In this document: in pieces, positions 11,259-64,000 of the stretch
Layout: every line of letters begins with the position of its first letter
How positions within the stretch are numbered: the stretch's first letter is position 1
Assembly: GCF_039595935.1 (NCBI RefSeq)
Contig: NZ_JBCNKR010000004.1
Location: forward strand, 433,001-497,000
Reading direction: 5' to 3'
Length of the DNA: 64,000 bases
Source of the DNA: Flavobacterium sp.
GTDB taxonomy: Bacteria; Bacteroidota; Bacteroidia; Flavobacteriales; Flavobacteriaceae
The notes under the pieces: model-generated
Databases searched by the model: none
Told to the model about the DNA's origin: nothing
The model's input: the letters and a program-made list of their open reading frames with translations, nothing else
Program-made: the position numbers and the translations under genes

Positions 11259-11325
11259 AAACCATATAAGTTATATAAGTTCAATTAAGCGAAAACTTAA
11301 ATTACTTATATAACTTATATGGTTT
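11259..11325. repeat. Palindromic repeat with AACCATATAAG arms
   Basis: Perfect 22-base inverted arms at 11259-11280 and 11304-11325, with a 23-base centre that is itself partly palindromic. A sister copy is at 13818-13883 and a lone half near 17464. The right arm overlaps the stop codon of the GH2 gene at 11324. It may act as a terminator for the locus, as both strands have T/A runs beside it. The rest of 11206-11258 shows nothing. Confidence 0.8.
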
Positions 11326-13765
11326 AAAAAATCTTTGTGGATCTGTGACTTTGTGAGATTTGATTCACTTTAACTTCAATTGCAGAAGGCTGTAAATTAG
11401 AAGTCGTCGCTTTCAACTGAACATTGTCTTTCTTTCCATTCGATTGAATAATCACAACACATTTTCCATTAAACAACTTACAAGAATTTGCTTTAAACGA
11501 CTCTAAATTGGCTTGATATCCATTATCAACTCCGACTAATTTTCCTCCACCTGTTACTTCAAAATTGATTAAATCCATGGCGTTTGGCACTAAGTTTCCG
11601 TCTTTGTCAAGCATTGAAACCGTAATGTAAACCAAATCGTAAGTATCATTTTTGATAGACGTTTTATCCCCTTTTAAATCTATTTTAGAAGCTTGTCCTG
11701 CTGTATGAATTTCTTTTTCTAAAACCACTTTTCCGTTCTTTCTGGAAACGGCTTTTAAAGTTCCTGGCTCAAACTTCACTTTCCATTCAATATGCAAATC
11801 ATCATTTTGTTTTGATTTTTTGCCAAGCGATTTTCCGTTTAAGAATAATTCTACTTCATCGGCATTATTGTAATACGCCCAAACATTAATTTCCTGATCT
11901 TTTGTCCAGTTCCAATGCGGTAAAATATGCAGAACTGTTTTCTTCGACCATTCGCTTTGGTACATATAATACACATCTTTTGGAAGTCCAGCTAAATCGA
12001 CGATTCCGAAATACGAACTTCTTGCAGGATATGGATACGGATCAGGTTCTCCGATATAATCAAAACCTGTCCAGATAAAAGTTCCCGCCATGAAATCCTG
12101 ACTTTTAATTGTTTTCCAGTTTTCTTCGTGTGTAGCGCCCCAATATGATTTTACCTGATCGTAAGCCGAAACGGTCCAATCTGCATTTCCGTCAAACGGA
12201 GCACCGTGTTTTGTTGGCCAAGCTTTAATATTATCCGATTGATCATAATGTCCGCGCGTTTCTAAAGCTGAAACACTTTCTGAAGCTAATATTTTCTGTC
12301 CTTTAAATTTAGTTGGAAAATCTTTATAATCTTCATGTTTGTAATTGAAACCTAAAAGATCTAAAGCTCCAGATTGGTAAATAAAATTCTTCTCGATTAC
12401 ATTTTCGGTCAAAGCAGAAGTTACAGGACGCGTTACGTCTAAAGATTTTACAATTTTCGCCAATTCTCTTGTAATCGCAATTCCAGTCGAATCAAACTGT
12501 TCTCTGATTTCGTTCCCTATACTCCACATCATCACCGACGGATGATTGCGATCTCTTTTGATAAAATCTTCTAAATCTTGTTTGTGCCAAGCATCCCAAT
12601 CTTTGTGGTAATCGTTGGTTACTTTTTTCTTTTTCCAAACGTCAAAAGCTTCGTCCTGAACAATGAATCCCATTTCGTCACACAATTGCATCATTTCCAA
12701 AGAATGTGGATTATGAGACATTCTAATAGCGTTTGCTCCCATTTCTTTCATCAAAGTCAGTTTTCTTCTAACGGCATGAATGTTTTCTACCGCTCCTAAA
12801 GCACCATTATCATGATGCAGACAAACTCCGTAAATCTTGGTTGGAACACCATTTAATGAAAAACCTTTTTCTGAATCGAAATTAAAATATCTAAATCCAA
12901 GCGGTGTTTCATAATTATCAACCAATTTCGATTTCTCGTAAACTTTAGTAATAACTTTATACAAATACGGATTTTCTGTATTCCATAATTTTTGCTGTTT
13001 TATTTCTAAATTATGAATCTTTTTCTCAGACGTTTTAGCTCCGATTTTTTCTATTGAAGTAAAATTGGCAACTTCTTTATTTTCTGCATTTACAATCGAA
13101 GTAACGAGCTTAAATTCTTTAACAGAAACATTATCATTATCAATGGTAACTTCTAAATGTATTTTTGATTTTTCTGCTGAAACTTCTGGCGTAGTAACAA
13201 AAGTTCCCCATTTTCCAACGTGCAGTTTTTCGCTCGCAATTAATCTTACATTTCTATAAATCCCAGAACCCGTGTACCATCTCGAATTAGGCTGAGAATC
13301 ATTATCTACTTTTAAAGCAATAACATTTTCTTTTCCAAAGCTCAAATATTGAGACAAATCATATCCAAAAGAAATATAACCATTTGGACGAATGCCTACT
13401 GATTTTCCATTGATAAAAACTTCACTATTCTTAAAAACACCATCAAATTCAATTGAGACTGTTTTGTTTTTCCAATTCGCAGGAATAGTAAATGTTTTAC
13501 GATACCAGCCTTTTCCAGCCGGTAAAAATCCCTGTGCTTGTTTGGTTTTAGCATCTTTATCAAAAGCGCCTTCGATACTCCAATCGTGCGGTAATTGTAG
13601 CGTTCTCCAATCAGAAACATTGAATTTGGCATTTATTGCTTCAGGATAATCTCCTAATTTAAAGTTCCAGTTTTTGTTGAAGTCTTCTACAATTCTGACT
13701 TGTTTTTGTGCAAAAATTGAAACTGAAAGCATGATTGCAAATGCAAGCGTAATTTTCTTAACCAT
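11324..13765 (-). CDS. GH2 family exo-glycosidase (beta-galactosidase-like)
   Basis: Secreted enzyme of 813 residues. The ATG at 13765 was chosen because it opens a clear signal peptide (MVKKITLAFAIMLSVSIFAQ). The frame is open further upstream, but only through palindromic repeat DNA. Domain order: GH2 sugar-binding jelly roll, Ig-like domain, catalytic TIM barrel, then DUF4982- and C5-like sandwich domains. The acid/base is Glu419 in WSIGNEI, and the nucleophile is probably Glu496 in ILASESVS. GH2 enzymes of this layout remove terminal beta-linked galactose or glucuronic acid; which one is not decidable here. It is the last gene of the locus. The last dozen or so residues (QSHRSTKIF end) are encoded by sequence resembling the dispersed repeats, so the C-terminus looks extended by repeat insertion. 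Confidence 0.88.
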   Translation of the reverse strand: MVKKITLAFAIMLSVSIFAQKQVRIVEDFNKNWNFKLGDYPEAINAKFNVSDWRTLQLPHDWSIEGAFDKDAKTKQAQGFLPAGKGWYRKTFTIPANWKNKTVSIEFDGVFKNSEVFINGKSVGIRPNGYISFGYDLSQYLSFGKENVIALKVDNDSQPNSRWYTGSGIYRNVRLIASEKLHVGKWGTFVTTPEVSAEKSKIHLEVTIDNDNVSVKEFKLVTSIVNAENKEVANFTSIEKIGAKTSEKKIHNLEIKQQKLWNTENPYLYKVITKVYEKSKLVDNYETPLGFRYFNFDSEKGFSLNGVPTKIYGVCLHHDNGALGAVENIHAVRRKLTLMKEMGANAIRMSHNPHSLEMMQLCDEMGFIVQDEAFDVWKKKKVTNDYHKDWDAWHKQDLEDFIKRDRNHPSVMMWSIGNEIREQFDSTGIAITRELAKIVKSLDVTRPVTSALTENVIEKNFIYQSGALDLLGFNYKHEDYKDFPTKFKGQKILASESVSALETRGHYDQSDNIKAWPTKHGAPFDGNADWTVSAYDQVKSYWGATHEENWKTIKSQDFMAGTFIWTGFDYIGEPDPYPYPARSSYFGIVDLAGLPKDVYYMYQSEWSKKTVLHILPHWNWTKDQEINVWAYYNNADEVELFLNGKSLGKKSKQNDDLHIEWKVKFEPGTLKAVSRKNGKVVLEKEIHTAGQASKIDLKGDKTSIKNDTYDLVYITVSMLDKDGNLVPNAMDLINFEVTGGGKLVGVDNGYQANLESFKANSCKLFNGKCVVIIQSNGKKDNVQLKATTSNLQPSAIEVKVNQISQSHRSTKIF

Positions 13766-13778
13766 ATTTTTATTTTTT

Positions 13779-13916
13779 CTCTCGCAAAGACGCAAAAGCG
13801 CAAAGTTTTTTTTTCTGAACCATATAAGCAATATAAGTTCATTTAAAACAAAACTTAAATTATCTTATATTGCTTATATGGTTTAATTTCCTTTGCGACT
13901 CTGCGTCTTTGCGAGA
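13779..13916. repeat. Two nested palindromes between the GH2 genes
   Basis: The outer arms, with TCTCGCAAAGACGC (13779-13804) and its inverse (13891-13916), match at about 23 of 26 positions. Inside them lies a copy of the AACCATATAAG palindrome with perfect 20-base arms at 13818-13837 and 13864-13883. The structure looks like one repeat inserted into another. It supplies the spurious upstream start of the GH2 frame. Confidence 0.8.
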
Positions 13917-13926: not shown

Positions 13927-16900
13927 TTACTGAAATTCGAAATTATCCAACATTAACCCCTTCAAATCATCGCCTTCCAACGTAATTTTATACGTTCCTG
14001 CATTAATATATCCTCCCGAAGTTGTATTTAAAATCTTCCATTTTTCAGGCGATGGGAAAAATTCAATCGTATCATTTCGCATTAAAATTCCGTACGCATC
14101 TTCCATTTTGAACTTCACTTTTAAAGGTGTTTCGTTTCGATTCATAAAACGGAAACGCATTAAATAAATTCCCGCAACGCCCGGTTTTACTTCAAACTCG
14201 ATGCTATTATTTGTCTTTTTAGTGAACTCAATATAATCCGCTTTTTTGAAATTTCCTTTTTCGATTCCCGCTCCAGTTGTTTTTGTTTTTTCAGCTTCGA
14301 TGATTACGACAGGTCTCGAATCGTCTTTTTCGCCCATGTCGTAAGTTGGAACGACCACAATGGTAGAGATTGTTTCTCCATTATCAAAAAGAACCTTCTC
14401 GCCTTTATTTACTTTTTTAGTAAAAACCTCAAATAAAATTCCGTTGCTGTTTTTCGCTTTTTCCTCTATCTTTTTATAATCCAAAAGTCCGTTTACTGTT
14501 TTTATTTTACTGTCAACTAAAACATAAATCGTCGATTCTTCTTTTGCTGTAAATGAACCTTTATTTTTTGAATTAATTGAAAACTGTAAATAATCTGCTC
14601 CAAAAACTTCTGAAGGCAATTCGGTAAAACTCACTTCTGAATCAACATATTGCTTCGAATTAATATCTAACCAAGAAGCTATTTTAAAGTCTTTAGAATC
14701 TAAACTCACATGCTGAATATTGCTTGGAGATTCTGTAACAGGTTTACTGTTTTTATCTTTCGTAGCAATCGCAATCGCAGAAATAATCGCCTGCGAAGCT
14801 TTTACATTTGGAAATGAAATTACAATTTTTCCGTTTACGCTTTTTACTACGAACGTTTTCTTTAAAGCGTTGTCATGTCCTGCTTCTGACCAAATATCAA
14901 AATCTTTTAAAACTACATTTTCATTAATGGCAACATCAAACAAACGCCAGCCTTTGCAATCCATTCCGCCTCCAGTTCCGTACCAAGGTTCTGTGAAATA
15001 AAGTTCTACTAAATATTCGCCGTCTGGAGCAGGAAATTCGTAACGCAATTTATCAACACCATATCTAAAACTTTGAAACAACTCAGGATCTTTTGTGCCG
15101 TTTATTGGATCGAAAGTTTTTCTTTGGCTGGCAAAAAAGTCTGGAAGTTTCTCAAAATTATCGGTCCATGATAATGAACCCCAAGTATTTTGTCCGCTTT
15201 TATGCCTGTCTGTCGACCAAATATTTCCTGAACTATCTGTCAATTCAGAACCTCCGCAGTTAACTCTATAAAGATAATTGTAACTTTTATTCGGTTTTAA
15301 AATATCGTTTTTATCCGCAACTAAAGTTTCAAAATTGGGTGCTTTAGGCAAATTATTTAAAACAATATAATCTTTTGCAACTACTTTTCCGTTTACATAA
15401 CCAACGGCATATAAAACATTATACTGAATATTGACATTATTGAATTGAAAATGCTGTCCGATTCCCGGATTTTTTAATTTTCCAAGTGAAACTTTATTGA
15501 CGTCATTAAACAATTCCACTTCATCACAATTGGAATAAATATCGATTCCGTTTTGGATTCCCGGTTTTTCCCAACGGCTTGGCCAAGTGTGCGAAACGAT
15601 ATAAACCATCGGATTGGTTTTGTTCGAAACATAATTCGCCCGATACATATAAAAAGCATCCAAAGGTTCACCCCAAATCGTAAAAAGTCCTTTGTAATTT
15701 ACTGGACCAACTTTGTCAATATCTCTAAATCCTTCGCCATTCTGCACTCTTCCCGGATTTTCGTGCGAAGCAAAAAGCCAGTTGAATTGTCCCGCAATTT
15801 TATCTTTTACCGATTCGGCTTCTCTAACTTTAATTTCCATTAATTGAGAAAAACGGTTTTCGCTTAAAGTCCCTTTTTGATCAAACTCGCCCTCGGTATG
15901 TAAATCGGCTGAACGCCACGCGCCATATTCTCCGTTTAATAACTGCGTTGTCATTTCTAAATGATACTTCAACGGATCTCCACCGTAAGTTCCCGACCAG
16001 TTTTGAACCACATTCCAATCGGTTCCTTCTCCACCATTACAAGTCGTTACAATTCTTTGCGAAGCTGATAACGGATCCATTTCGCGGATAGTCTGCGTGC
16101 ATTCTTCAGCAAATTCTTTTGGAATCGTACTTTCGTTCTGCAATCCCCACATTACTACAGACGGACTGTTTCTGCGTTCTTTAATCCATTCTCTTAATAA
16201 TGTTTTAAAGTTTTCTTTGAATTCTGGCGTATCATACCAAATATGTGCAGAAAACTGACTCCAAAATAAAATTCCGTTTTCGTCCAATTCTTTTTGATAT
16301 AATAAATTATGAGGCTGATGTGCTTCTCTAAAAGCATTAAATCCGCCTGCTTTGATTTGCCCAATTCTGGAATGAATCATTTCATCTGAAAACGAATGAC
16401 TTTTTCCAATTAAATGTTCGTATTCACAAACGCCATTTATAAAAACCAGTTCGTCATTTATGAAAAAACGATTATCTTTTCCGTCACGGCTAACCGGCCA
16501 GCTCACCCAACGAATTCCGTACGTCGTTGTTAATTGATCAATTACTTTTCCATTTTCGTAAATTGAAGTAACCAATTTATACAAATACGGATTAGATGGC
16601 GACCATAATTTCGGATTTTGAATCTCAGGAAGTATCTGCGCTATTTCTTTTGTTTCTCCAGAATTGATTTTGTTATCGATTTTTATAATAGCAACTTTCT
16701 TTCCTGAAGCATCTAGAAGAATATTTTCAATTGTTAAATTTCTTTGTGAAGTGCCGTAATTCTTGATTTCTGTAGTTGTATGAAGAATAGCCTTTCGCTT
16801 AGAAACTGATTTATCATTCCAGATATGAACGCCAAAAGGCTGAATTCTGACATCGTTTGTAATTATTAAAGAAACTGGCCTGAAAATACCCATTGGCTGA

Positions 16901-17448
16901 GAACCTTCCGAAAATCCCCATTCGCCAGAACAGCCACCGCAAACCCAAGGTAAATCGGCTATAAATGACGGATGTGAAGCTTTTACTAAAATGATATTTT
17001 CTTTGTCAAAAGAAACGGCTTTTGTAATGTCTAATGTAAAAGTCGTGCGTCCGCCTTTGTGTTCTCCAACTTTTTTGCCATTTACCCAAACAGTAGCGTA
17101 CGAACTTACACCTTCGAAATAAAGAAAATGCTGTTTTAAGCTGTCTTTCTTATCGAGTTTTAGTGTCTTTTTGTACCAAGCAGTGCCGTGTAAATTTCCA
17201 TGTTTTGTTCTTCTAAAACCATAATACTGATCCCAATTGTGAGGCACACTAACCTTCTGCCAATCAGAATCAGTTTTTGGATGGTCTACAAACCTCTCTT
17301 CCTGCACCGGAAGATTTTCCAACATTATGGTTTCCCAAGATGAATTCAGCGAAATCTCTTTACGAAACTTCCCTGAATCTTTGCTCTGACTCCAAACAGA
17401 GCAAAGACTTGAGAAAAAACAAAAAATAAAAAAAACTATTCTATTCAT
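13927..17448 (-). CDS. GH2 family glycosidase with malectin domain
   Basis: An 1173-residue secreted protein with a signal peptide ending at VWSQ (residue 21). The GH2 part has the jelly roll (about 30-195), an Ig-like domain, and a barrel with acid/base Glu439 in MWGLQNES. A candidate nucleophile is Glu507 in LLNGEYGAW. After the barrel come a DUF4982-like segment and a malectin carbohydrate-binding domain (about 735-905, with YRVNCGGSELTDSSGN and VELYFTEPWYG). A final beta-sandwich resembles a carbohydrate-binding module. GH2 proteins with malectin domains are frequent in pectin and algal-polymer loci. The substrate is probably a beta-linked galactosyl or glucuronyl unit, but specificity is not visible. 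Confidence 0.86.
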   Translation of the reverse strand: MNRIVFFIFCFFSSLCSVWSQSKDSGKFRKEISLNSSWETIMLENLPVQEERFVDHPKTDSDWQKVSVPHNWDQYYGFRRTKHGNLHGTAWYKKTLKLDKKDSLKQHFLYFEGVSSYATVWVNGKKVGEHKGGRTTFTLDITKAVSFDKENIILVKASHPSFIADLPWVCGGCSGEWGFSEGSQPMGIFRPVSLIITNDVRIQPFGVHIWNDKSVSKRKAILHTTTEIKNYGTSQRNLTIENILLDASGKKVAIIKIDNKINSGETKEIAQILPEIQNPKLWSPSNPYLYKLVTSIYENGKVIDQLTTTYGIRWVSWPVSRDGKDNRFFINDELVFINGVCEYEHLIGKSHSFSDEMIHSRIGQIKAGGFNAFREAHQPHNLLYQKELDENGILFWSQFSAHIWYDTPEFKENFKTLLREWIKERRNSPSVVMWGLQNESTIPKEFAEECTQTIREMDPLSASQRIVTTCNGGEGTDWNVVQNWSGTYGGDPLKYHLEMTTQLLNGEYGAWRSADLHTEGEFDQKGTLSENRFSQLMEIKVREAESVKDKIAGQFNWLFASHENPGRVQNGEGFRDIDKVGPVNYKGLFTIWGEPLDAFYMYRANYVSNKTNPMVYIVSHTWPSRWEKPGIQNGIDIYSNCDEVELFNDVNKVSLGKLKNPGIGQHFQFNNVNIQYNVLYAVGYVNGKVVAKDYIVLNNLPKAPNFETLVADKNDILKPNKSYNYLYRVNCGGSELTDSSGNIWSTDRHKSGQNTWGSLSWTDNFEKLPDFFASQRKTFDPINGTKDPELFQSFRYGVDKLRYEFPAPDGEYLVELYFTEPWYGTGGGMDCKGWRLFDVAINENVVLKDFDIWSEAGHDNALKKTFVVKSVNGKIVISFPNVKASQAIISAIAIATKDKNSKPVTESPSNIQHVSLDSKDFKIASWLDINSKQYVDSEVSFTELPSEVFGADYLQFSINSKNKGSFTAKEESTIYVLVDSKIKTVNGLLDYKKIEEKAKNSNGILFEVFTKKVNKGEKVLFDNGETISTIVVVPTYDMGEKDDSRPVVIIEAEKTKTTGAGIEKGNFKKADYIEFTKKTNNSIEFEVKPGVAGIYLMRFRFMNRNETPLKVKFKMEDAYGILMRNDTIEFFPSPEKWKILNTTSGGYINAGTYKITLEGDDLKGLMLDNFEFQ

Positions 17449-17828: not shown

Positions 17829-20558
17829 TTAATAAAACAACCAGTCTATCGCTGCTTTTTCTCCTGCATCAATATATCCAACATCACGTGGCGTTATGGT
17901 TTGATCTGCGTCGATAAAACCTAAAATCAATACTTTTCCTTTTCCTAAGTCTAATTTATTCTCGCCCGGTTGGAAAGTGTATGTATGAATATTTACACGT
18001 GGAAGCTCTTTTAAATTAATAGCACTTGCCAAAATCACTTCGGCCTGACCGTGAGCATTTCCTGCTGCATCAGTTTCTAAACTTGGTGGTAACAAAAATC
18101 TTTTTTGATCTGAATTGAAATACCCCACAACTAATTTAACAGCTTTTGTATTTCTAAACTTTGAATGTGTTCCTTTTTCGTTTTGATCGTTTTCTACGAA
18201 CGAGAATCCTTTGAGATTTTGAAGTTCTGGAGCGATTTTAGTTAATTCAGAAATATCTGTTCCGTACACTTTTGTTCCAGTTTTAACTAAATAAGTTCCC
18301 GGTTTTTCGTCGATGAAAGTTACTTCAGCTGTTTTCCAAGGTTTTCCTTCTTTGGTTTCAATTTTACCATCTTTTGATGCTTTTAGCTTTTCTAAATTTC
18401 TTTTAAAATTAGCCAACTCACGTTCGTAATGAGGTAACAATTCAGCCCAAGTTTTGTTGTTTCCATCGTCTCCTCCAATCGGAATTCGGCGTTGAGCGGT
18501 CTGCATACTATTCGCATAATAATAAGTATCTTTTGTCAAGTTAACCAATAATTCGTAATGCTCGATGCTTTTCTCTAAATGAGGCATTGCTTTGTCTAAA
18601 TCGCTGATATCGTTTGAATAACTGTATCTTAAAACCAATAAAGCTGCTTTTACTTTTTCTGAAAAGAAATCGGCGAAAGCCTTATAAGCATGCATATCAT
18701 TTTTAAGACGTGCAAATTCTTCTTTGTCTTTGGTTACGCTCGCTTCAGCTTTATCAATTGCTTCAACTGCTAATCTTCCGTGTTCTGTAATTTCAGCAAT
18801 AATCTGCGTTGGAAGTTCACCTGAATGCGGTTCTTTGTTCCATTCTTTTTTAGCATATTCTAAAAGCAATTCTCCCGCTGGTCCGCAAGATTCGTGGAAT
18901 CCTGGATAAACACGCCATTTAGACGGATTTACCAACTGACTTTCGAACATTCCTAACAATAAAGTTTGGCGATTTCCTTCTGTGATTCCGAAACGTCTTA
19001 AGGTTTTTGGAGCAATTTCACCTGTTTCTTCGTATGCTTTTAGAATGTTATTTGCTGCTTCTTGAGTTGTTCCGAATTTCGTTGCTAAATCTTTATCCCA
19101 GAATTTAACTTCTTCGTTACGATCTCTTTGGCTATCCCAAGCATATCTCGCCCAAGCTTTGTACCAAATCCAGTCACGATCCATTTCTAATAAACGTTCT
19201 CCTGATTTCGTTTTATCTGCTGAATATGGCCAATCCCAATACGAAGCCTGTGGATATAAATGCAGTGCATTTGCTCCGTGAACACTGTGCATCGCTTTTA
19301 CCGTTTTCTGAATAAAATCTGGCGAACCATATCTGAAAGGTTCTAAGTTTGCCAAAATATGAACGTTCTCAATATGAATTGATTTAAGAGCGCTCAACTG
19401 TTTGTGCGTTTCTCCCCATGGTCCGCCCGGAGTATAAGTTGTTAAAGATTCACCAGTATATTTACTTTCTGTGTAAAGGTTTTTGTATAACGGAAGTGAT
19501 TTTTCCATTACCAAAGGCCCGTCTGTATCGTGAGAACGAAGGATAATTGGCGGTTCTTCTGTTTTTCCTAATGCCTGTAAACCGTCACGAACACCCGGAA
19601 TAATGGTTTTGGTAAACCATTCTACGTCATCATCAACGGTATTGATTGCTTCTCCCAAACAAACCATTAAACCAACGTTTGGGTATTTTTCTATGAAAGC
19701 GGCGATAGATTTTCTGGTGTAATCAGATAATAAAGGCGTTATTGGTCTTGAACGATCCTGAGTTTTAATGTTGTAATGCTCTGCAAAAGGTTTAGAAACA
19801 AGAATATTATAGAACATCTGAATTACCCAAATTCCTCTTTTATTGGCTTCAACCGTTAAGAATTTATAGATTTCTTCATTTTTTTTAAAATCTTCATCGC
19901 TTACTTCTACAGCAAAAGGATATTCTTTTAGTTTCACTAAAGAAGCAAAAGGATGTCCATTCCATAAATACAATGAGTTCATGCGGTTTTCTACCAGCAT
20001 ATCTAAATATTTCACCCACAAAGCTTTATCATAAAACCAAGGAAAAGTTTCTGGTGTATACGGATATTCGTAAACATCACGCCCAGGAAGATAAACTGGT
20101 TTCTGCATTCCGATACAAGCGCCTCTCAAAACCATTTCCGGACTGTCATCAATACTAATTTCTGAAGGAAGTTTTCCTGAAGCTTTAATTTTATCTGTTA
20201 ATTCTAATGCTCCATACAAAGCTCCTGAAGCATCTGTTCCTTCAATATAAATTACATTATTTTGAGTACGAATCTGAAAACCTTCTTTCTTAGTTAATTT
20301 GCTGTCGTCAATTTTAGCGCTTTTAGCAGTCTGTTTCCAGAAATCGGTTCCTTTTTCTCCTATTACAATTACTTTATCTTTTGATTTTTTGAATTTATCA
20401 GAAGAAGTTACGCTGAAACCTTTTGCTGTAAGCGTTTCTGATAATTTCTCTGCTCCAAATTTTACTCTCGGCGAATTGGCATCACTTACAACTGTGATGT
20501 TCTGCGCTGTCGCGAAAGAAATGAAAAAACATAAAAAAAGTAATTGTAAATATTTCAT
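17829..20558 (-). CDS. GH67/GH115-like exo-uronidase candidate
   Basis: A 909-residue exported protein with signal peptide ending at FATAQ (residue 19). Residues about 20-130 form the alpha/beta domain found at the N-terminus of GH67-type alpha-glucuronidases (GFQIRTQNNVIYIEG, TDASGALYGALELTDKI). A barrel-like central region follows (PEMVLRGACIGMQ, MLVENRMNSLYLWNGHPFAS, NVGLMVCLGEAINTVDDD), then a helical region rich in charged residues and a C-terminal beta domain. GH67 and GH115 remove terminal alpha-glucuronic acid, and related proteins have been called alpha-galacturonidases. Its place in a pectin locus makes a uronic-acid-removing role attractive. The precise family and substrate are inferred and uncertain. 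Confidence 0.6.
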   Translation of the reverse strand: MKYLQLLFLCFFISFATAQNITVVSDANSPRVKFGAEKLSETLTAKGFSVTSSDKFKKSKDKVIVIGEKGTDFWKQTAKSAKIDDSKLTKKEGFQIRTQNNVIYIEGTDASGALYGALELTDKIKASGKLPSEISIDDSPEMVLRGACIGMQKPVYLPGRDVYEYPYTPETFPWFYDKALWVKYLDMLVENRMNSLYLWNGHPFASLVKLKEYPFAVEVSDEDFKKNEEIYKFLTVEANKRGIWVIQMFYNILVSKPFAEHYNIKTQDRSRPITPLLSDYTRKSIAAFIEKYPNVGLMVCLGEAINTVDDDVEWFTKTIIPGVRDGLQALGKTEEPPIILRSHDTDGPLVMEKSLPLYKNLYTESKYTGESLTTYTPGGPWGETHKQLSALKSIHIENVHILANLEPFRYGSPDFIQKTVKAMHSVHGANALHLYPQASYWDWPYSADKTKSGERLLEMDRDWIWYKAWARYAWDSQRDRNEEVKFWDKDLATKFGTTQEAANNILKAYEETGEIAPKTLRRFGITEGNRQTLLLGMFESQLVNPSKWRVYPGFHESCGPAGELLLEYAKKEWNKEPHSGELPTQIIAEITEHGRLAVEAIDKAEASVTKDKEEFARLKNDMHAYKAFADFFSEKVKAALLVLRYSYSNDISDLDKAMPHLEKSIEHYELLVNLTKDTYYYANSMQTAQRRIPIGGDDGNNKTWAELLPHYERELANFKRNLEKLKASKDGKIETKEGKPWKTAEVTFIDEKPGTYLVKTGTKVYGTDISELTKIAPELQNLKGFSFVENDQNEKGTHSKFRNTKAVKLVVGYFNSDQKRFLLPPSLETDAAGNAHGQAEVILASAINLKELPRVNIHTYTFQPGENKLDLGKGKVLILGFIDADQTITPRDVGYIDAGEKAAIDWLFY

Positions 20559-20666: not shown

Positions 20667-21551
20667 TTAGTTTTGGAAAATGCGTTTTAAATACGTCACA
20701 TTTGCTCCGTAATTAGCTTTTACATTATGAACTTGTATTACATCACGAGAACGCTCTACAATCAGCCATCCGCTCCATTTCATTTCATCTAATGTTGCTT
20801 TGATTTTAAGCATGTCAATCGCGGGGTCGTTTTCTAACCAAAATTGATCAGTATTTGAAGCATGGATCTGCGCTAGATATTTCTTGCCTAAGATTTTTAA
20901 TTCTGACGAAATATCTCTTTTATTGTCTAAAGCATTCGCAAAATTGAATGAACTTTTAATGTATTTTGAACCGACTTCGTCTAAAAGTTTTTTCTCTTCT
21001 GTCGCGTCCAAAGAAGTTTCAATTGCAATTACACCACCAATTTTCCCGACTTCTTTTCCTGCCCATTGTAATCTTTTAATTACTTCTGGACGCAATTCCG
21101 GATTTTTAACTAAATCGGTCTGAGTTCCTAATGGAAGATATGCCACTTTTACTTTCATGTTTTTCATCGCCTGAATACAATCCGTAATCATGGGCGTGAT
21201 TTCTCTCGTAGCAAAAGATTGTGCATAAAATCCAGACATCGCAATCGAACTGATTCCAACGCCAGTTTCTTTTGATTTATCTAAGAATTTTTGTCTTTCG
21301 ACTGGGTCGCCCAATTTGCTGTCAAAAGTTGGGCGGTTTCCTAAACCTCCCATATCGAGTTCGATCCCGTCTGCTTTGATTTCAGATGCTAACCCAAAAG
21401 CACCTAATTTTTGTCTTTTCAAAATCATCCAGTCGCAAACCGCAACTTTATATTTTTGTTTTTTGTTTGAAGACTGAGCTGTTGCACAGCTATTGAATGT
21501 TGTTGCTACAAGAATAAGTATTGCAACAATTAAGTTTTTATTTAGCTTCAT
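20667..21551 (-). CDS. Exported TIM-barrel protein of the sugar isomerase/epimerase type
   Basis: The preferred start is the ATG at 21551, which opens a lipoprotein-like signal (MKLNKNLIVAILILVATTFNSC). An in-frame ATG 45 bases upstream lies in repeat DNA. The 294-residue protein has the xylose-isomerase-like TIM barrel: IKADGIELDMGG, GVGISSIAMSGFYAQ, VIAIETSLDA, YLAQIHASNTDQFWLEN, GWLIVERSR. Cytoplasmic relatives interconvert sugars or sugar phosphates using a divalent metal. Export is unusual for that job, so it may be a periplasmic epimerase, lyase or non-catalytic protein acting on released sugars. The activity is unknown. Confidence 0.72.
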   Translation of the reverse strand: MKLNKNLIVAILILVATTFNSCATAQSSNKKQKYKVAVCDWMILKRQKLGAFGLASEIKADGIELDMGGLGNRPTFDSKLGDPVERQKFLDKSKETGVGISSIAMSGFYAQSFATREITPMITDCIQAMKNMKVKVAYLPLGTQTDLVKNPELRPEVIKRLQWAGKEVGKIGGVIAIETSLDATEEKKLLDEVGSKYIKSSFNFANALDNKRDISSELKILGKKYLAQIHASNTDQFWLENDPAIDMLKIKATLDEMKWSGWLIVERSRDVIQVHNVKANYGANVTYLKRIFQN

Positions 21552-21557
21552 GTTAAT

Positions 21558-34861: not shown

Positions 34862-34878
34862 TTTGTATATTTTTTTTC

Positions 34879-58651: not shown

Positions 58652-61111
58652 TTATTTTGCAAAGAAATTTATAGTTCTGCTCATTGAATCTCCATCCGCA
58701 TCTTTTACAGTTACTACGAAAGAAGCGAAACCTTTATCTGAAGCCGTGAATTGAATTTCTTTTCCTTTTAAACTTGCTTTTCCATTTTTTACTTCAGAGA
58801 AAGTATAAACAGGTTTATTTTCAAAACCTTTGAAATAATCTGCCACGTTTAAAACTTTTTTATCTTTTAAATTGATAAAAAAATGAGGCTGAGCCAACCA
58901 GTCTAAATAATTATCCAACTGCGTAAATCCGTCTTTATCGGTATCTGAATTGGCATCTGAGAAATCTCCTGAAGGGGAGTTTTCATTCAAACCAAAAGCT
59001 TTTTCCCACCAGTTTGGCAAACCATCATGATCGGTGTCCCAATCAGCTGGACGAGTTTCTGAAACAAAATTTGGCCATCCTCCAGCATCTTGTTCGTTAT
59101 CGATCATTCCGCCTAAACCGCTTTTGCTTCCTTTATAAGTAAAAGTTCCTTTTAAAGTTTCATCGATAATTCGGTTATCATGTTTGCCAAAAAACGGCTG
59201 ATTAGCACCAACATCCGAAAGTACATTTTTGTAAGCCGCTTTTGCTGATTGCGTTTCTACGTAAGAAGGAAAAAATGGTTTATCAACAAAAGTTTCATAT
59301 TCAACTTTTTCATTATTACTTATAGTAGATTTTCTTCCTTTATCCTGAGATTTCTCATCAAAATAACCCGGCATTATGTTTCCGTCAAAATAGTAACGCT
59401 GCATTCCTTTTCCAACTCCTTCATGTTGTGCATTTAGAGCCACAAATATGGTTGTTGAAACACCTGGTTTATAGTAATTATTTACAAAATTTACTTCGTT
59501 TGCTCCACCGTCAGTTGTTCTTCCTCCCCAATTGTAAACTACATTGTTTGTAATATCCAGTCTTCCTGTATAATAGCCATCTCCATTTAAACCTCCGCCA
59601 ATACTCCAGTTACGACCTTGATTATGTGCTAATAAATTATGATGGAAACTTCCAATATCTCCGCCAATTGTTGCTGCGAAACCGTGCATTTTTCCAGCAG
59701 GATATTTATCATGTCCAGCCACGTTTAAAGCTTCTGAAATTAAAGTTCGCTGTAGCGTAATATGATGCGCACCACGTGAACTAAACGATTCGTCAATTGT
59801 CCAGCTTATCGAACAGTGATCAATAATACTGTAATCTGCACCTGTTAATCCCATTCCGTCAAACGTAGTTCCACCACCTATGCGAACCGTCAAAAAGCGA
59901 ATTACTCCATCATTTCCAGTTAACCCAATTGGCGCTCTGCTGATTGTGATTCCTTCTCCCGGAGCCGTTTGTCCAGCGATAGTAATATATGGCTGATTTG
60001 CGACTAATCTCGAAGCCAATTTGATATTTCCCGAAACATTAAAAACAATTGTTCTTGGTCCAATTTCCTGATTTATGGCATCACGTAGACTTCCTGGTCC
60101 GTCATCATTCAAGTTTGTTACTTCTATTACTTTTCCTCCACGTCCACCAACTGCATATCTTCCGTAACCTTCAGCTCCAGGAAAGGCCAATTGTGCAGGT
60201 TTAAATGACCATACATTTCCTAAAGTTACAGTTCCGTTAGAATCAATTTCGTCAACTCTCCAATAATACGTTGAACCGCTGTATAAGTCAGAAACAGTAA
60301 AACTTTTATCGCTTTGTTTTCCTTTAAATTCTTTTGAAGATTCGGTTGCTGTTTCAACCGCATTTTTATCAGTTCCAAAATACACTTTATGAGCCACTAC
60401 ATTTTTTGGAGCATCCCATTTTAAGATTAAACTTTTAGTTACTTCAACATGTTCATCTCTGTTTTTTGGTTCCGGAGTACGAGCCTGATTCATTAAGTTT
60501 GGCGTATCCAATTCAAAACCATTAATCACAATCTGTTTTACAATATCTGGATTTGAAGTCGGATCGATTTCAAAACGAACGATTACATCTTTTCCTTTTT
60601 CGGCACTAAAAGTAATATATGCCATCGAAGCATCAATCTTAGCATTAGCTCTCTGACTTGCATTTACGGTTTCCTGAAGTTTTCCATCCACATAAATTTT
60701 TATGGGTGAAAAAGTCTTTCCCGTAATCACATCAAAGGCATTATGAAATGTCAAAAGCGTATGTTTACCTTCTTTTAAACCACTGATTTTTAATTCTAAA
60801 TTTTCAGCTGTTATTAATCCGTCGCTTCCCAATTTATTGTAAAAAGGAGCGTTCATACCCACTTTATACCATTTTGAAGTGAAGTTTCCTTTTAGTTTAA
60901 AACTTACTGCGTTAAACGTTTTCTGGTCTTCTTTGTTTTCATTGATAACCCAAGCTTCATAACTCGGATCGTGAACCTCTTCTAATCTTCTTTGAAAAAA
61001 GTCAAAATCGACTTTTACAATTTGTTTATCAGTATTTTGAACTGATTGTGCTTGTCCGTTTGTGGTCAAAAATAGGGACAAAACAGCACCGCTTATTAAT
61101 TTCTTAATCAT
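58652..61111 (-). CDS. PL1-type pectate lyase with malectin-like and FN3 domains
   Basis: 819 residues with signal peptide ending at NGQAQ (residue 22). Residues about 30-200 look like a carbohydrate-binding domain (EVHDPSYEAWVINENKED). A fibronectin type III module follows (EVTKSLILKWDAPKNVVAHK, GSTYYWRVDEID, about 215-300), then a PL1-like beta-helix (FPGAEGYGRYAVGGRG, AGQTAPGEGITISR), a Ca2+-binding tail (DTDHDGLPNWWEKAFG) and a final Ig-like domain. It is more distant from the two tandem lyases and may act on a different part of pectin. Confidence 0.87.
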   Translation of the reverse strand: MIKKLISGAVLSLFLTTNGQAQSVQNTDKQIVKVDFDFFQRRLEEVHDPSYEAWVINENKEDQKTFNAVSFKLKGNFTSKWYKVGMNAPFYNKLGSDGLITAENLELKISGLKEGKHTLLTFHNAFDVITGKTFSPIKIYVDGKLQETVNASQRANAKIDASMAYITFSAEKGKDVIVRFEIDPTSNPDIVKQIVINGFELDTPNLMNQARTPEPKNRDEHVEVTKSLILKWDAPKNVVAHKVYFGTDKNAVETATESSKEFKGKQSDKSFTVSDLYSGSTYYWRVDEIDSNGTVTLGNVWSFKPAQLAFPGAEGYGRYAVGGRGGKVIEVTNLNDDGPGSLRDAINQEIGPRTIVFNVSGNIKLASRLVANQPYITIAGQTAPGEGITISRAPIGLTGNDGVIRFLTVRIGGGTTFDGMGLTGADYSIIDHCSISWTIDESFSSRGAHHITLQRTLISEALNVAGHDKYPAGKMHGFAATIGGDIGSFHHNLLAHNQGRNWSIGGGLNGDGYYTGRLDITNNVVYNWGGRTTDGGANEVNFVNNYYKPGVSTTIFVALNAQHEGVGKGMQRYYFDGNIMPGYFDEKSQDKGRKSTISNNEKVEYETFVDKPFFPSYVETQSAKAAYKNVLSDVGANQPFFGKHDNRIIDETLKGTFTYKGSKSGLGGMIDNEQDAGGWPNFVSETRPADWDTDHDGLPNWWEKAFGLNENSPSGDFSDANSDTDKDGFTQLDNYLDWLAQPHFFINLKDKKVLNVADYFKGFENKPVYTFSEVKNGKASLKGKEIQFTASDKGFASFVVTVKDADGDSMSRTINFFAK

Positions 61112-61126: not shown

Positions 61127-63487
61127 TTAGTTTAATTTCGTTTTCTCTGCTTCAGATTTTCCTAGCAGATTTATAATGTCTTTTTTTCTTTCTTCAGGAA
61201 TTACTTTTAAAACCTTCAATTCTCCGTTTAGAAGCTCGGCTTCAATTGTTGTATTTTGTTTGGCGTGTAATTTAAAATGAACGTTCCAATCTTTTGGCCA
61301 AGCGGGAAAAAGATAAATCTTACCGTCAGCTTCCTGCAAAAGCATTTCCTGCATGCCAATCATTCCCGAACCGCCCCAATTATGATCTGGAACCCAGTCA
61401 AAACCTGGTCCCCAAAAAGCAGGAAAACGTCTTTCTGAATTGGCCATTTTCATTGTATTGTATTTTGCTGCGTCTTCGGTTAAACCCAAACGAGCCGAGA
61501 AAATATTATCTTGTTTCCAGCCAATATGACTTCTAAATTTTATAGCATCAGAGTCGTATTTCCATGTATTTAAAGCCGTTTCTAAATCTGGTTTTCCAAT
61601 GCCATAAATGCCCCACGGATATACTGGATACAATTGCGGAACTTCCGAATTATTGACTCTTTCCCAGGATTTAGCAGGGACCAAAACTTTATGATTTTCA
61701 ATCTGTCCAAAATTCAAAGGCGGAATTCTTCCTGAAAAGTCAATTAAATATGCCGCATCTTCAACTGATAATTGGTTCCCAGAAAGCTTTAAAAGACTTT
61801 CTGTAATCACTTGTAAAGCCGAAATCGTACTATTGGCATTATTCGCCATTTTATACGTTTCTGCTCCAGAACCCGGATATAAAACTAATTTTCCGTTTCC
61901 GTCCAAAGCTTTTCTGCCTCTTTGTTTCGCTAAATATTGATAATGCTCATCAAAAAAACGAAGACAGCTGATGATGAATTGATTGTATTTCTGAATATCT
62001 TCTCCTGCATATTCTTTCTGCTGTAGCATCATTTGGCAGAATTCTAAAACCGTATCCCACTCATATTCTAACCATGCATTATATTCCATTCCCGGATCAT
62101 AATCTGCGGGACGTTTCCATTCATATTCCGCAGGATTTGGCAAACCGAAATTTTCTAATTGTTCTGTGAATGATGCGCCGTTGTGATTCCAGTAAACTTT
62201 GCTTCTTAATTCAGCATTTTTTTGAATGTTCAAATAATAATCTAGTTGCGATTTCATCATATCAAAATCACCGCTTTTTACCATCGGAAAATAAACCAAT
62301 CGCTGATTTTGAGCCGTCATTGTTCCTCCGCCCCAGTTTCTAAAATCGGGTGTAAAATCTAAATCTTTATTGGTATAAACTGGATCAACCGTAAAAAGTC
62401 CGCCGTTGAATTTTGTTGGATATTTTCCGTACGCATTGCATCCCAACATATATCGAAACAACTGATAATTCTGTCCGATTTGATAAACTGAATCTTTCTC
62501 AATCGATTGATTTTTTTGAGTGAAAATAAAACTGCGGCTCCAGAAATTATTCCACCATTTTTGCGTGTTTTTTTCTGCTTGTTTGGCTGTGTTTTTATTT
62601 TGAGAAATCAAACTTTTCAATCCGTTATTCCAAGTCAAAAAATCAGATTGGTTCGTATTTAAATATATTTCTAATGAATGTTTTTTCGATGGTTTTATAC
62701 TTGATAAATTAAAACCTTTAAAATCGGTTGATTGGTATTTTCCTAAATACGTTCCGTTTGGTTTTAGATTATTTCCTGAGATAAATCCGCCGAAAGTCAG
62801 ATTTGCAATCGGGTTCAGCATTTGGTCTTTAACCGATTCCATTTTTTGTTGTTTTACCGCTACATCAAAAACTGTATTTTCTCTGTTTCTGTGGTAAAAT
62901 TTGATTCCGTTATTTTCAAACGAAATAGAATCTTTAAACATAATAAGTTCTCCTTGAGGCGCCCATTTATAGGAATTAGCGTTGTTTTCTTTTCCTTTCG
63001 GATAACGGTTCTGATAACGCCAGCTTTCATAAGAAGCCGTCATTTGCAACGCATTTTTACTTTCTAAATCGACATGAATAATCGGTTTAAAAACATCTAC
63101 CCAAAGTTTGATTTTAGTATCATTTTGTCCAACCAAGATATAACCATCTTTGAGTTTCAATTCCTGATGAAAACCGTCTTTCCCTTCAAACGGATTCGGC
63201 ATTAAAGTCACTTTTATACGACCTAATTTCAATAAGGTATTATGCTCATCGAAAGTCCCACTTCGTGAAAAATAAAAATACAAATCGCCTTTCTCCACCC
63301 AGACATTCATACCAATATCCCCGCCACCTAAAGGCATTGATTCTGATGAATTCTGACTTTGTGTTGTCCAAACCTGATTGTAATTATCAAGCGTAGGAAT
63401 TTGCGCTTTGAGATAAAGCGTTGTGAAGAGAAGTATGTATTTTATGTATTTCAATTTTATTGTTTTTTTAAAGTTTTTTTTTGTCAT
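61127..63487 (-). CDS. DUF5703 family exported protein
   Basis: 786 residues if started from the ATG at 63487. A TTG at 63454 would give a tighter signal peptide (KYIKYILLFTTLYLKAQ), and the ATG belongs to the end of a palindromic repeat. The N-terminal half is beta-rich (ESMPLGGGDIGMNVWVEKGD, LYFYFSRSGTFDEHNT), as in GH95-like proteins. The C-terminal half is an (alpha/alpha)6-type helical domain (MMLQQKEYAGEDIQKYNQF, NSTISALQVITESLLKLSGN), then a short beta tail (KLHAKQNTTIEAELLNGEL). This resembles the GH95/GH65 clan, so a retaining or inverting exo-glycosidase is likely. No substrate is known to me. Confidence 0.7.
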   Translation of the reverse strand: MTKKNFKKTIKLKYIKYILLFTTLYLKAQIPTLDNYNQVWTTQSQNSSESMPLGGGDIGMNVWVEKGDLYFYFSRSGTFDEHNTLLKLGRIKVTLMPNPFEGKDGFHQELKLKDGYILVGQNDTKIKLWVDVFKPIIHVDLESKNALQMTASYESWRYQNRYPKGKENNANSYKWAPQGELIMFKDSISFENNGIKFYHRNRENTVFDVAVKQQKMESVKDQMLNPIANLTFGGFISGNNLKPNGTYLGKYQSTDFKGFNLSSIKPSKKHSLEIYLNTNQSDFLTWNNGLKSLISQNKNTAKQAEKNTQKWWNNFWSRSFIFTQKNQSIEKDSVYQIGQNYQLFRYMLGCNAYGKYPTKFNGGLFTVDPVYTNKDLDFTPDFRNWGGGTMTAQNQRLVYFPMVKSGDFDMMKSQLDYYLNIQKNAELRSKVYWNHNGASFTEQLENFGLPNPAEYEWKRPADYDPGMEYNAWLEYEWDTVLEFCQMMLQQKEYAGEDIQKYNQFIISCLRFFDEHYQYLAKQRGRKALDGNGKLVLYPGSGAETYKMANNANSTISALQVITESLLKLSGNQLSVEDAAYLIDFSGRIPPLNFGQIENHKVLVPAKSWERVNNSEVPQLYPVYPWGIYGIGKPDLETALNTWKYDSDAIKFRSHIGWKQDNIFSARLGLTEDAAKYNTMKMANSERRFPAFWGPGFDWVPDHNWGGSGMIGMQEMLLQEADGKIYLFPAWPKDWNVHFKLHAKQNTTIEAELLNGELKVLKVIPEERKKDIINLLGKSEAEKTKLN

Positions 63488-63584
63488 TTCGACTGAAAGG
63501 AGAAATCACACCCGTAACCACAAAGATTGTCGTTTACTGTTGCAGAATTTCTAGTGTGATTTCTCCTTTCAGTCGAAATGACAA
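63481..63584. repeat. TTGTCATT...AATGACAA long palindrome, copy 5
   Basis: 104 bases with near-perfect arms TTGTCATTTCGACTGAAAGG / CCTTTCAGTCGAAATGACAA. The inner GAGAAATCACAC / GTGTGATTTCTC also pairs. It overlaps the first three codons of the DUF5703 gene. Next to it at 63599-63619 is a short run of AACTCATAACTCATAACTCA, also seen at the outer edge of the 6263-6555 repeat. Confidence 0.85.
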
Positions 63585-63633
63585 ACTAGATGCCAAAACT
63601 CATAACTCATAACTCATCATTCAAAATTCACAA

Positions 63634-64000
63634 TTACCATTCGTCAGTTCTAAACGATGAAACTGGCAAACCTCCTGCACTAAACAATTCCGCTTTAGCG
63701 AAATCTTTCCATAAATAACGAACTGCAACTGGATTCTTTACTTTCTCAGAAGTCAGAACTACTGATTTTCTTCTTACTACTGTCTTCGCTGGATAAAAAA
63801 CTTTGTCTTCTCCTGCGATTTCAAAACCTAAAACTTCTTTATCATAAGAGGTAATTCCGTTTGTAACATCATCAAAAGAAACGGTTACAGCGCCATCTTT
63901 TATTTCCATCGATTTGTATTTCGGACTTTCGAATTCGAAACCTTCAATTCCATAAGTTCTTGCCAAAGCCTGAAAAGCCAGACGATTCCCGCCTTTTTCT
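63634..64000 (-). CDS. SGNH acetylesterase, C-terminal part (5' end beyond window)
   Basis: The frame is open from the right edge to the stop at 63634, about 122 residues. The sequence EKGGNRLAFQALARTYGIEG, PKYKSMEIKDGAVTVSFDDV, NPVAVRYLWKDFAKAELFSA and the end GGLPVSSFRTDEW match the C-terminal end of sialate O-acetylesterase-type SGNH hydrolases. Such enzymes remove acetyl groups, which suits acetylated pectin. The catalytic Ser, Asp and His would be in the missing part. It is the last visible gene of the locus towards the right. Confidence 0.75.
   Translation of the reverse strand, partial: EKGGNRLAFQALARTYGIEGFEFESPKYKSMEIKDGAVTVSFDDVTNGITSYDKEVLGFEIAGEDKVFYPAKTVVRRKSVVLTSEKVKNPVAVRYLWKDFAKAELFSAGGLPVSSFRTDEW

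What the first reader, a model, noticed from the sequence alone, without database searches (positions are those of the whole stretch)
11324..64000. Very large pectin locus with an RG-II-type enzyme set
About 25 genes, all on the minus strand, code for a SusC/SusD pair and exported enzymes. GH140 (apiosidase-type), GH127, GH95, two GH78, two GH2, a sialidase-fold lipoprotein and an MGH1-like lipoprotein are the families that dismantle RG-II side chains in Bacteroides thetaiotaomicron. PL1, GH28 and CE8 handle the homogalacturonan part. Typical RG-I markers (PL9, PL11, GH105, GH53) are not seen, and neither are GH106, GH137, GH138 and GH139 of the Bacteroides RG-II set. Either they lie beyond the right edge or uncharacterised members here replace them. 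A soil or plant-associated Flavobacterium RG-II system of this kind would be a good second model.
Basis: partly seen in the sequence, partly recalled or inferred. Interest (0 to 1): 0.8.

Follow-up and report, generated by a model that had tools for sequence, protein, structure and literature searches.

The report
Flavobacterium gene cluster for digesting rhamnogalacturonan-II
A Flavobacterium carries, in one stretch of DNA, enzymes of nearly every family known to take apart rhamnogalacturonan-II, the most complex plant sugar polymer, plus extra genes that may handle the one sugar pair that the well-studied gut bacterium leaves uncut.

Summary
The locus is a rhamnogalacturonan-II (RG-II) utilisation locus of about 75 kb, running 22 kb past the window's right edge. 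GH138 (17829-20558) and GH139 (61127-63487, all 11 published key residues conserved) are in the window; GH106, GH137 and GH141 follow to the right. Aceric-acid hydrolase, GH142, GH143 and a BT1017-type esterase are there too.

It differs from the Bacteroides thetaiotaomicron system. (1) GH143/GH142, GH137/GH2 and GH78/sialidase-like are separate genes. (2) An orphan exported protein, UNK559, is present; a fourth GH2 found in eight other loci read is absent. (3) A GH141-mutarotase fusion is followed by a Gfo/Idh/MocA oxidoreductase, a sodium-sugar symporter and an oxidative L-fucose operon. In 395 Bacteroidota genomes that oxidoreductase (70% identity or more) occurs in 15, all among the 18 with GH138; it was not found in any of 17 GH138-bearing genomes of family f11, where the two loci read have Bt-type fusions.

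B. thetaiotaomicron leaves 2-O-Me-Xyl-alpha1,3-Fuc uncut. The boldest reading is that this module imports and splits it: untested. L-galactose or free L-fucose use would also fit.

The parts
11324..13831 (-). GH2 (GH2a), exported; GalB/GalA-like beta-galactosidase type
   Evidence: Pfam; NCBIfam (848 bits, below cut-off 900)
13927..17448 (-). GH2 + malectin: beta-glucuronidase half of BT0996, without its GH137 half
   Evidence: NF049877 positions 361-1400, 1563 bits, below the cut-off 1800 of the full fusion
17829..20558 (-). GH138 alpha-D-galacturonidase (chain A)
   Evidence: NF049878 1538 bits > 1300
20667..21596 (-). Lipoprotein-like TIM barrel (AP_endonuc_2 / sugar epimerase-like), function unknown; in 50 of 53 GH138-positive genomes; fused to the BT1017-type esterase in three genomes
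   Evidence: (N-terminus judged by eye)
21711..22856 (-). BNR/sialidase-fold lipoprotein; candidate Kdo ketosidase of chain C; fused behind GH78 in other genomes
   Evidence: PF13088; fusions
23000..25750 (-). GH78 alpha-L-rhamnosidase family (GH78a), next to the BNR protein
25923..27590 (-). GH142 beta-L-arabinofuranosidase (chain D), stand-alone
   Evidence: PDB 5mqr residues 616-1104, E 1.1e-228
27643..30093 (-). GH95 (alpha-L-galactosidase/fucosidase family)
30362..31780 (-). RG-II pectin methylesterase of the BT1017 type, without the DUF3826 domain
   Evidence: PDB 6goc, E 2.8e-122, residues 22-460
32081..34891 (-). GH78 alpha-L-rhamnosidase family (GH78b)
35019..36884 (-). GH143 Dha hydrolase (chain D), stand-alone
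   Evidence: PF24067 BT_1020-like propeller 414 bits, PF22585 206 bits
36970..37917 (-). GH43-like; candidate alpha-L-arabinofuranosidase of chain E/F (BT1021 position)
   Evidence: neighbour of GH143 in the other loci read
38155..39729 (-). GH28, backbone (candidate BT1018 counterpart)
39903..41300 (-). GH140 apiosidase family
   Evidence: PF13204 376 bits
41456..44608 (-). DUF6298 protein (pectin-lyase-like N-terminal part + DUF6298 domain), uncharacterised; match in 52 of 53 GH138-positive genomes
   Evidence: PF19815 777 bits
44875..46581 (-). PL1-like pectate lyase (PL1a)
   Evidence: NF041900 146 bits, below cut-off
46629..47315 (-). DUF3826 protein
   Evidence: PF12875
47443..49155 (-). 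PL1-like pectate lyase (PL1b)
   Evidence: NF041900 135 bits, below cut-off
49286..51253 (-). SusD
51272..54640 (-). SusC TonB-dependent transporter
   Evidence: TIGR04056 762 bits
55315..56298 (-). CE8 pectin esterase
   Evidence: PF01095
56449..58500 (-). GH127 aceric-acid hydrolase (chain B)
   Evidence: NF049879 1120 bits > 950
58652..61111 (-). PL1-like lyase with long N-terminal part (PL1c)
   Evidence: PDB 9buj E 8.9e-45
61127..63487 (-). GH139 2-O-methyl-alpha-L-fucosidase (chain B); complete Trp triad
   Evidence: PDB 9hyq E 8e-286; residues
63634..64000 (-). SASA-type carbohydrate esterase (cut by the window edge; gene runs to C4:498058). Locus goes on to the right: GH106, LacZ-type GH2, GH137, UNK559, GH78-like, AraC, MFS (+), SSF symporter, Gfo/Idh/MocA oxidoreductase, GH141-rhaM (to C4:518998), GH28 (+), L-fucose operon (to C4:528715)

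Best explanation
An RG-II polysaccharide utilisation locus with enzymes for all side chains. Exported esterases, PL1-like lyases and SusC/D prepare and import RG-II. In the periplasm the side chains are trimmed by chain-specific enzymes. Chain A: GH95, GH2, GH138, GH141, GH140. Chain B: GH137, GH106, GH2, GH139, GH127, SASA esterase. Chain C: GH78 plus the BNR protein, probably releasing Kdo. Chain D: GH142, GH143. Chain E/F: GH43. Backbone: BT1017-type esterase, GH28. Products go inward through the SSF and FucP-type transporters. L-fucose-type sugar is then oxidised by the adjoining dehydrogenase, lactonase and hydrolase genes. Shown: family membership, gene order, conservation. Inferred from characterised relatives: substrates. 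Guessed: Kdo release, cell location of each step, and the roles of UNK559, DUF6298, the TIM-barrel protein and the GFO/SSF module.
For: Curated equivalog cut-offs passed for GH138 and aceric-acid hydrolase. PDB relatives: GH142 of BT1020, BT1017 esterase, GH139 with 11 of 11 key residues and 433 of 741 aligned residues identical. GH143 propeller, GH140, GH137, GH106, GH141. Much of the set recurs in 11 other Bacteroidota loci and in a genome of another class without a full GH138. PL9, PL11, GH53 not hit, GH88/105 only below cut-off inside GH127.
Against: No growth, expression or enzyme data. Several enzymes are assigned only at family level (GH95, GH78, GH28, GH43, GH2a, LacZ-type GH2). The GH2 half, GH137 and GH2a fall below NCBIfam cut-offs, the first two because the model is of the whole fusion. 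CE8 and three PL1-like genes show that homogalacturonan is also a target. One SusC/D pair serves the whole set. In the 100-120 kb read around GH138 in eight non-Flavobacterium genomes some parts were not seen: CE8 in 0 of 8, GH139 in 2 of 8, GH127 in 3 of 8, GH106 in 4 of 8 (GH127 of G269 lies elsewhere).
Confidence: 0.94

Rival explanations
1. A general pectin locus (homogalacturonan plus RG-I) with some RG-II-like enzymes; RG-II is incidental.
For: CE8, GH28 and three PL1-like genes are present.
Against: Enzymes for aceric acid, Dha, 2-O-Me-fucose and apiose are present and PL9, PL11 and GH53 were not hit. Much of the set recurs as a unit in distant genomes.
Confidence: 0.04
2. The GH141-rhaM / GFO / SSF / L-fucose-oxidation part has nothing to do with the 2-O-Me-Xyl-Fuc disaccharide. 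It serves L-galactose released by GH95 (L-fucose dehydrogenases and FucP often accept it; recalled) or another freed rare sugar such as apiose or 2-O-Me-fucose.
For: FucDH and FucP models pass their cut-offs. L-Gal is a terminal sugar of chain A (PMC7939467, passage). rhaM and GFO can sit apart from GH141 (G943, G853). No GH31 alpha-xylosidase was hit in the proteins scanned.
Against: rhaM is fused to GH141, whose product in B. thetaiotaomicron is the disaccharide with L-fucose at its reducing end (PMC7939467), not to GH95. GFO is next to GH141, or parted from it only by a rhaM gene, in 18 of 20 regions.
Confidence: 0.45
3. UNK559 is a carbohydrate-binding or structural protein, not an enzyme, and its presence opposite the fourth GH2 is a lineage coincidence.
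For: No family match by Pfam (E up to 5) or PDB sequence. Its first 180 residues resemble the C-terminal domain of GH138, which could be a binding domain. The distribution is confounded with the genus Flavobacterium.
Against: It recurs inside an RG-II locus of another class (G286, 53% identity). Its second part of about 375 residues is highly conserved, with some 20 invariant Asp/Glu in 18 sequences, and weakly resembles five-bladed glycosidase propellers.
Confidence: 0.4

Closest known systems
RG-II utilisation loci of Bacteroides thetaiotaomicron (BT0980s-BT1020s; Ndeh 2017, not held, recalled and as cited by PMC7939467 and PMC12282258)
   Same: GH138, GH139, GH137, GH142, GH143, GH127 aceric-acid hydrolase, GH140, GH106, GH141, GH78, GH95, GH28, GH2 and BT1017-type esterase are present here.
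   Different: There the genes lie in three loci (PMC12282258); here in one. GH143-GH142 (5mqr) and GH137-GH2 (NF049877) are single chains there and separate genes here. Here GH141 carries a C-terminal rhaM domain and adjoins GFO, SSF and L-fucose genes. UNK559 is present, and the GH2 type found in all eight non-Flavobacterium loci read is absent from the locus.
RG-II loci of other Bacteroidota
   Same: Shared core of enzymes; GH143 and GH142 are separate in f3, f4 and f9 loci read; f3 and f4 share the GFO/SSF module.
   Different: UNK559 seen only in Flavobacterium and G286; fourth GH2 in 8 of 8 non-Flavobacterium loci read and 0 of 4 Flavobacterium loci. GH78 and the BNR protein are one gene in seven of the loci read: G238, G394 (f11), G150, G904, G916, G940, G948 (f4).
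DgpA-type Gfo/Idh/MocA 3-dehydrogenases of glycoside beta-elimination systems
   Same: GFO's best PDB match is DgpA1 (9m3d, 77 bits).
   Different: Low similarity; a general sugar dehydrogenase role is equally possible; no partner eliminase shown in the cytosol.

Membership tests
RG-II utilisation locus | Enzymes for RG-II sugars (aceric acid, Dha, 2-O-Me-Fuc, apiose) | tested here: met
   by sequence family: GH127 NF049879, GH143, GH139, GH140
RG-II utilisation locus | GH137, GH138, GH106, GH141, GH142 present | tested here: met
RG-II utilisation locus | SusC/SusD pair in the cluster | tested here: met
RG-II utilisation locus | RG-II-specific methylesterase (BT1017 type) | tested here: met
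   6goc E 2.8e-122
RG-II utilisation locus | Induction by and growth on RG-II | not testable with these tools
   needs culture
GH139 (2-O-methyl-fucosidase) | Q411, N412, E561, N639, E641, W683, D723, N729 and the Trp triad W162, W403, W490 (BT0984 numbering, PMC12282258) | tested here: met
   11 of 11 identical; triad is W175, W385, W472 here
GH138 | Curated equivalog score | tested here: met
   1538 bits against cut-off 1300
Bt-type fused architecture (GH143-GH142; GH137-GH2; GH78-BNR, the last recalled as BT1013) | Both domains in one gene | tested here: not met
   separate genes here
GH33-type Kdo hydrolase (BNR protein 21711-22856) | Sialidase fold and ketosidase activity on Kdo | tested here: inconclusive
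   fold family yes; activity untested; only weak PDB sialidase matches
Known GH family for UNK559 | Significant match to a curated family over the second, putative catalytic part | tested here: not met
   none in Pfam, NCBIfam or PDB sequences; weak fold resemblance on a poor model

The most novel reading that the evidence does not exclude
Some Bacteroidota outside the Bt-type family have a route for the last uncut RG-II linkage. GH141 with its exported mutarotase domain releases 2-O-Me-Xyl-alpha1,3-L-Fuc and equilibrates its reducing end. The SSF symporter imports it. The RG-II-restricted Gfo/Idh/MocA enzyme starts an oxidative split of the bond, and the freed L-fucose is burnt by the adjoining L-fucose dehydrogenase pathway. 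In the same locus UNK559 founds a new glycosidase family that takes over a step done elsewhere by a fourth GH2.
Probability: 0.25. Interest if true: 0.85.

Novelty: new variant of a known kind. Interest (0 to 1): 0.62.

Why it matters
RG-II is present in all plants, and its breakdown has been worked out in a gut Bacteroides. A one-locus version in Flavobacterium, with split single-activity enzymes, would give cleaner reagents and a second model. It also points to specific genes for the one linkage B. thetaiotaomicron cannot cut and to two uncharacterised protein families: DUF6298, found in 52 of 53 GH138-bearing genomes examined, and UNK559, so far seen in two lineages.

Tried and rejected
RG-I locus: rejected, no RG-I marker above cut-off. 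'GH138 and GH139 replaced by uncharacterised proteins': rejected, both are present. The GH43-like gene 36970-37917 as a split GH137: rejected, GH137 is a separate gene to the right. TIM barrel plus GFO as a DgpA/DgpC-like pair in one compartment: weakened. By eye the TIM protein has a lipoprotein signal and GFO has no signal peptide; TIM is fused to the BT1017-type esterase in three genomes and is present in 15 of 17 f11 genomes that lack GFO. AlphaFold models of DUF6298 and UNK559 were poor (mean pLDDT 47.7 and 48.5). Only UNK559 was searched by Foldseek, and its second-domain match is treated as weak. Profile comparison of the DUF6298 C-terminal part with nine, and of its N-terminal part with five, families of the locus gave nothing. 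PADLOC search of UNK559: nothing.

Results against my reading: five GFO-bearing f4 genomes (G950, G907, G940, G861, G902) showed no rhaM domain, whole genome at E 1e-60 or near GFO at 1e-8; G866 had neither GH141 nor rhaM. GH138-negative G853 has rhaM-GFO-SSF. G166 (f9) has separate GH143 and GH142 but no GFO, so split genes and GFO do not go together strictly. G815 (f121), without GFO, has an SSF-like stretch (50%) near GH141. G093 has a 39% GFO relative. The p352/lactonase-like pair was seen beside GH138 in only 10 of 17 f4 loci. Bacteroides commonly use phosphorylative L-fucose genes elsewhere (recalled), so lack of oxidative genes there is not lack of L-fucose use. The GFO pattern follows family lines, so the Fisher p-values overstate the evidence.
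Full report
What is there. The window is C4:433001-497000 of a 5.49 Mb genome. For its GH142 gene 167 related stretches were found in named genomes and the best 80 listed: 73 in records named Flavobacterium, 3 'Flavobacteriaceae bacterium', 4 others ([Flexibacter] sp., Mariniflexile, Leeuwenhoekiella, a Bacteroidia MAG); best match 97% in F. phragmitis. From 11324 to the right edge there are 25 minus-strand genes. The cluster continues to C4:518998 (GH141), about 75 kb in all, interrupted among genes of 150 aa or more only by an MFS gene on the plus strand. A plus-strand GH28 and an L-fucose operon follow, up to C4:528715. To the left lie genes that look unrelated (an ankyrin protein; ribonucleotide reductase by eye, not searched).

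Families. Two RG-II equivalog models pass their cut-offs: GH138 alpha-galacturonidase at 17829-20558 (1538 bits) and aceric-acid hydrolase GH127 at 56449-58500 (1120 bits). GH142 at 25923-27590 matches residues 616-1104 of 5mqr (E 1e-228; that 5mqr is BT1020 is recalled). GH143 at 35019-36884 matches the BT_1020-like propeller model. The esterase 30362-31780 matches 6goc (DUF3826-domain protein, taken to be BT1017; E 3e-122). GH140 is at 39903-41300. The DUF5703 protein 61127-63487 matches 9hyq at E 8e-286. All 11 residues that PMC12282258 (abstract/introduction section and passages read) names for BT0984/GH139 fall at the same positions of 9hyq with an offset of one and are identical here, Trp triad included; 433 of 741 aligned residues are identical. 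That paper reports the full triad in just over 40% of GH139 sequences and links it to chain B. To the right: SASA esterase, GH106, LacZ-type GH2, GH137 (NF049877 positions 3-367), UNK559, a GH78-like protein, AraC, SSF, GFO, and GH141 with a C-terminal rhaM domain.

Comparison loci. Of 11 other GH138-bearing Bacteroidota loci (100-120 kb each; three Flavobacterium, eight not), the three Flavobacterium ones have every one of the 35 genes compared. In the eight others the chain A, C, D, backbone and apiose genes are mostly there at about 40-65% identity, but within the stretch read CE8 is in 0 of 8, GH139 in 2, GH127 in 3, GH106 in 4.

Split genes. BT0996 is GH137-GH2 in one model; here positions 361-1400 and 3-367 are two genes 55 kb apart. 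GH143 and GH142 lie in one gene only in the two f11 loci G238 and G394 and are separate in the other nine. GH137 and the GH2 half share a gene in G238 and G394; they are separate in six loci, and one of the two was not seen in G150, G269 and G080. The BNR lipoprotein 21711-22856 directly follows GH78a here, but is one gene with GH78 in G238, G150, G394, G904, G916, G940 and G948, so this fusion is not confined to f11. BT1013 is recalled to be such a GH78-GH33 protein. Since chain C is Rha-Kdo (PMC12282258), the BNR protein is my candidate Kdo ketosidase. That is inferred, not shown.

Uncharacterised core. DUF6298 (41456-44608) matches in 52 of 53 GH138-positive genomes (G866 only over residues 15-379, G902 in two pieces) and, of 16 GH138-negative genomes, full-length in one (G851) and over the first half in one (G847). 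The TIM-barrel protein is in 50 of 53 and 1 of 16, and is fused to the BT1017-type esterase in G916, G938 and G940. The 53 and 16 are handles I chose; they are not a random sample, and two of the 53 (G902, G866) score below the GH138 cut-off. No paper in the library holds the word DUF6298.

UNK559 (L001:10735-12414). It has no Pfam match at E up to 5, no PDB sequence match, and an NCBIfam match only of residues 24-182 to the GH138 C-terminal domain (hhalign probability 99). Foldseek on a poor model again finds GH138 for that part and, weakly, five-bladed GH43/GH130/GH117-like propellers for the rest. It is full-length or nearly so in 23 of 121 Flavobacterium genomes. A 53% identical homologue in G286, a genome of another class without a full GH138, sits inside an RG-II locus with GH106, GH127, GH143, GH140, DUF6298 and others. 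A fourth GH2 of about 930 residues is present in all 8 non-Flavobacterium loci read and in none of 4 Flavobacterium loci. In whole genomes it is found at 55% identity or more in 21 of 22 f4 (two in pieces), 2 of 2 f3 and 1 of 1 f9 (in pieces), at 49-51% in 14 of 17 f11, and at 50% in 1 of 1 f121. Of 28 Flavobacterium genomes none exceeds 48%: 15 have a 43-48% relative elsewhere and 13 have none. Of these 28, 25 are verified to hold UNK559; for G202, G324 and G343 only its first domain in a frame of suitable length was seen. UNK559 may thus have replaced that GH2. This is a hypothesis, and the genus explains the pattern equally well.

The GH141 module. GH141 is found in 51 of 53 GH138-positive genomes (not G866, G1095). 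It carries the rhaM domain in 10 of 10 Flavobacterium, 14 of 22 f4 and 2 of 2 f3, and in none of the f11, f9 or f121 genomes. Stand-alone rhaM proteins with lipoprotein-like N-termini stand beside GFO in G848, G943 and the GH138-negative G853. GFO is in 34 of 53: 10/10 Flavobacterium, 22/22 f4 (G866 in part), 2/2 f3, 0/17 f11, 0/1 f9, 0/1 f121; controls 1 of 16. In 395 genomes drawn across the phylum, GFO at 70% identity or more occurs in 15, all among the 18 with GH138 over its cut-off; one further genome, G093, has a 39% relative. The naive Fisher p is 1.6e-24; within the genus it is 10/10 against 0/14, p 5e-7. Shared ancestry makes these p-values too small. SSF adjoins GFO in 19 of 20 regions, the exception lying at a contig end. 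GFO's nearest solved relative is DgpA1, 77 bits.

L-fucose genes. Beside GH141 in the window's genome lie L-fucose dehydrogenase (353 bits, cut-off 300), an L-fuconolactonase-like protein (269, cut-off 400), a Zn-type dehydrogenase, a 2,4-didehydro-3-deoxy-L-rhamnonate-hydrolase-like protein (375, cut-off 500), an SDR, a second Gfo/Idh/MocA protein (p352) and FucP (369, cut-off 280). The dehydrogenase and lactonase are in the same place in 10 of 10 Flavobacterium genomes examined, own included. In f3, 2 of 2 have the hydrolase, SDR and lactonase beside GH138. In f4, 10 of 17 have a p352 relative (45-54%) and a distant lactonase-like protein (25-33%) beside GH138. In f11, 0 of 13 do (for 11 of them only about 8 kb each side of GH138 was read, which took in GH141 in 7; G394 has one partial 32% hydrolase hit elsewhere in its 120 kb).

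Why this matters. PMC7939467 (passages read) states that B. thetaiotaomicron cuts 21 of 22 RG-II linkages, all but 2-O-Me-Xyl-alpha1,3-Fuc, that its enzyme set including BT1002 leaves this disaccharide, and that cells accumulate it. In f11 the two loci read have Bt-type fusions, and none of the 17 genomes has GFO or a GH141 with rhaM. In f1, f3 and f4 GFO is present in all 34 GH138-positive genomes examined. This fits a route for that disaccharide. It does not prove one: no GH31 was hit in the proteins scanned, the bond-cutting step is not identified, G166 (f9) has neither the Bt-type GH143-GH142 fusion nor GFO, and L-galactose would also feed an L-fucose-type pathway.

In print. Searches listed no paper on a Flavobacterium RG-II locus (30 of 44 shown; 9 of 9; 5 of 5; 7 of 7; 87, 25 of 103 shown; 91, none; 1 of 1). 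I saw titles and abstract starts there. The library holds only open-licence papers. PMC12282258 says RG-II loci are also found in organisms of broader environmental niches, so their existence outside the gut is known. PMC8056085 (passages) reports pectin-induced PULs in F. johnsoniae; 'rhamnogalacturonan' and 'RG-II' do not occur in its main text. Ndeh 2017 was not held; assignments to BT0983, BT0992, BT0993, BT1010, BT1013 and BT1021 beyond the cited passages are recalled. PMC12168206, PMC10807430, PMC10628242 and PMC12758843 were read in passages only.

Verdict. An RG-II locus, supported by sequence throughout; a new variant of a known kind; the open question worth bench time is the GH141 module and UNK559.

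Noticed in passing
63480-63511 and 63554-63585: A perfect 32-nt inverted repeat (42 nt between arms) between the SASA esterase and GH139 genes, overlapping the first codons of the GH139 frame as called; its core matches twice in the window where shuffles give none, and not in L002 or L003.
   Followed up: partly
L238:2540-5199 (G286): Inside the RG-II locus of G286, OiaK-like kinase and OiaX-like RuBisCO-like protein genes (both below their cut-offs) suggest built-in apiose/isoapionate breakdown.
   Followed up: partly
49286-54640: SusC/SusD are only 62-71% identical to those of two other Flavobacterium loci (G170, G316) whose enzymes are mostly 87-98% identical, but 90-92% to a third (G206): faster turnover of the uptake pair.
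   Followed up: no
L229:3043-5355, L231:14-2227, L232:10493-12676: The BT1017-type RG-II methylesterase is fused to the TIM-barrel protein, instead of the DUF3826 domain that BT1017 carries (PMC7939467 passage).
   Followed up: partly
G866:C45: GH138 of G866 is found in two pieces in different frames.
   Followed up: no
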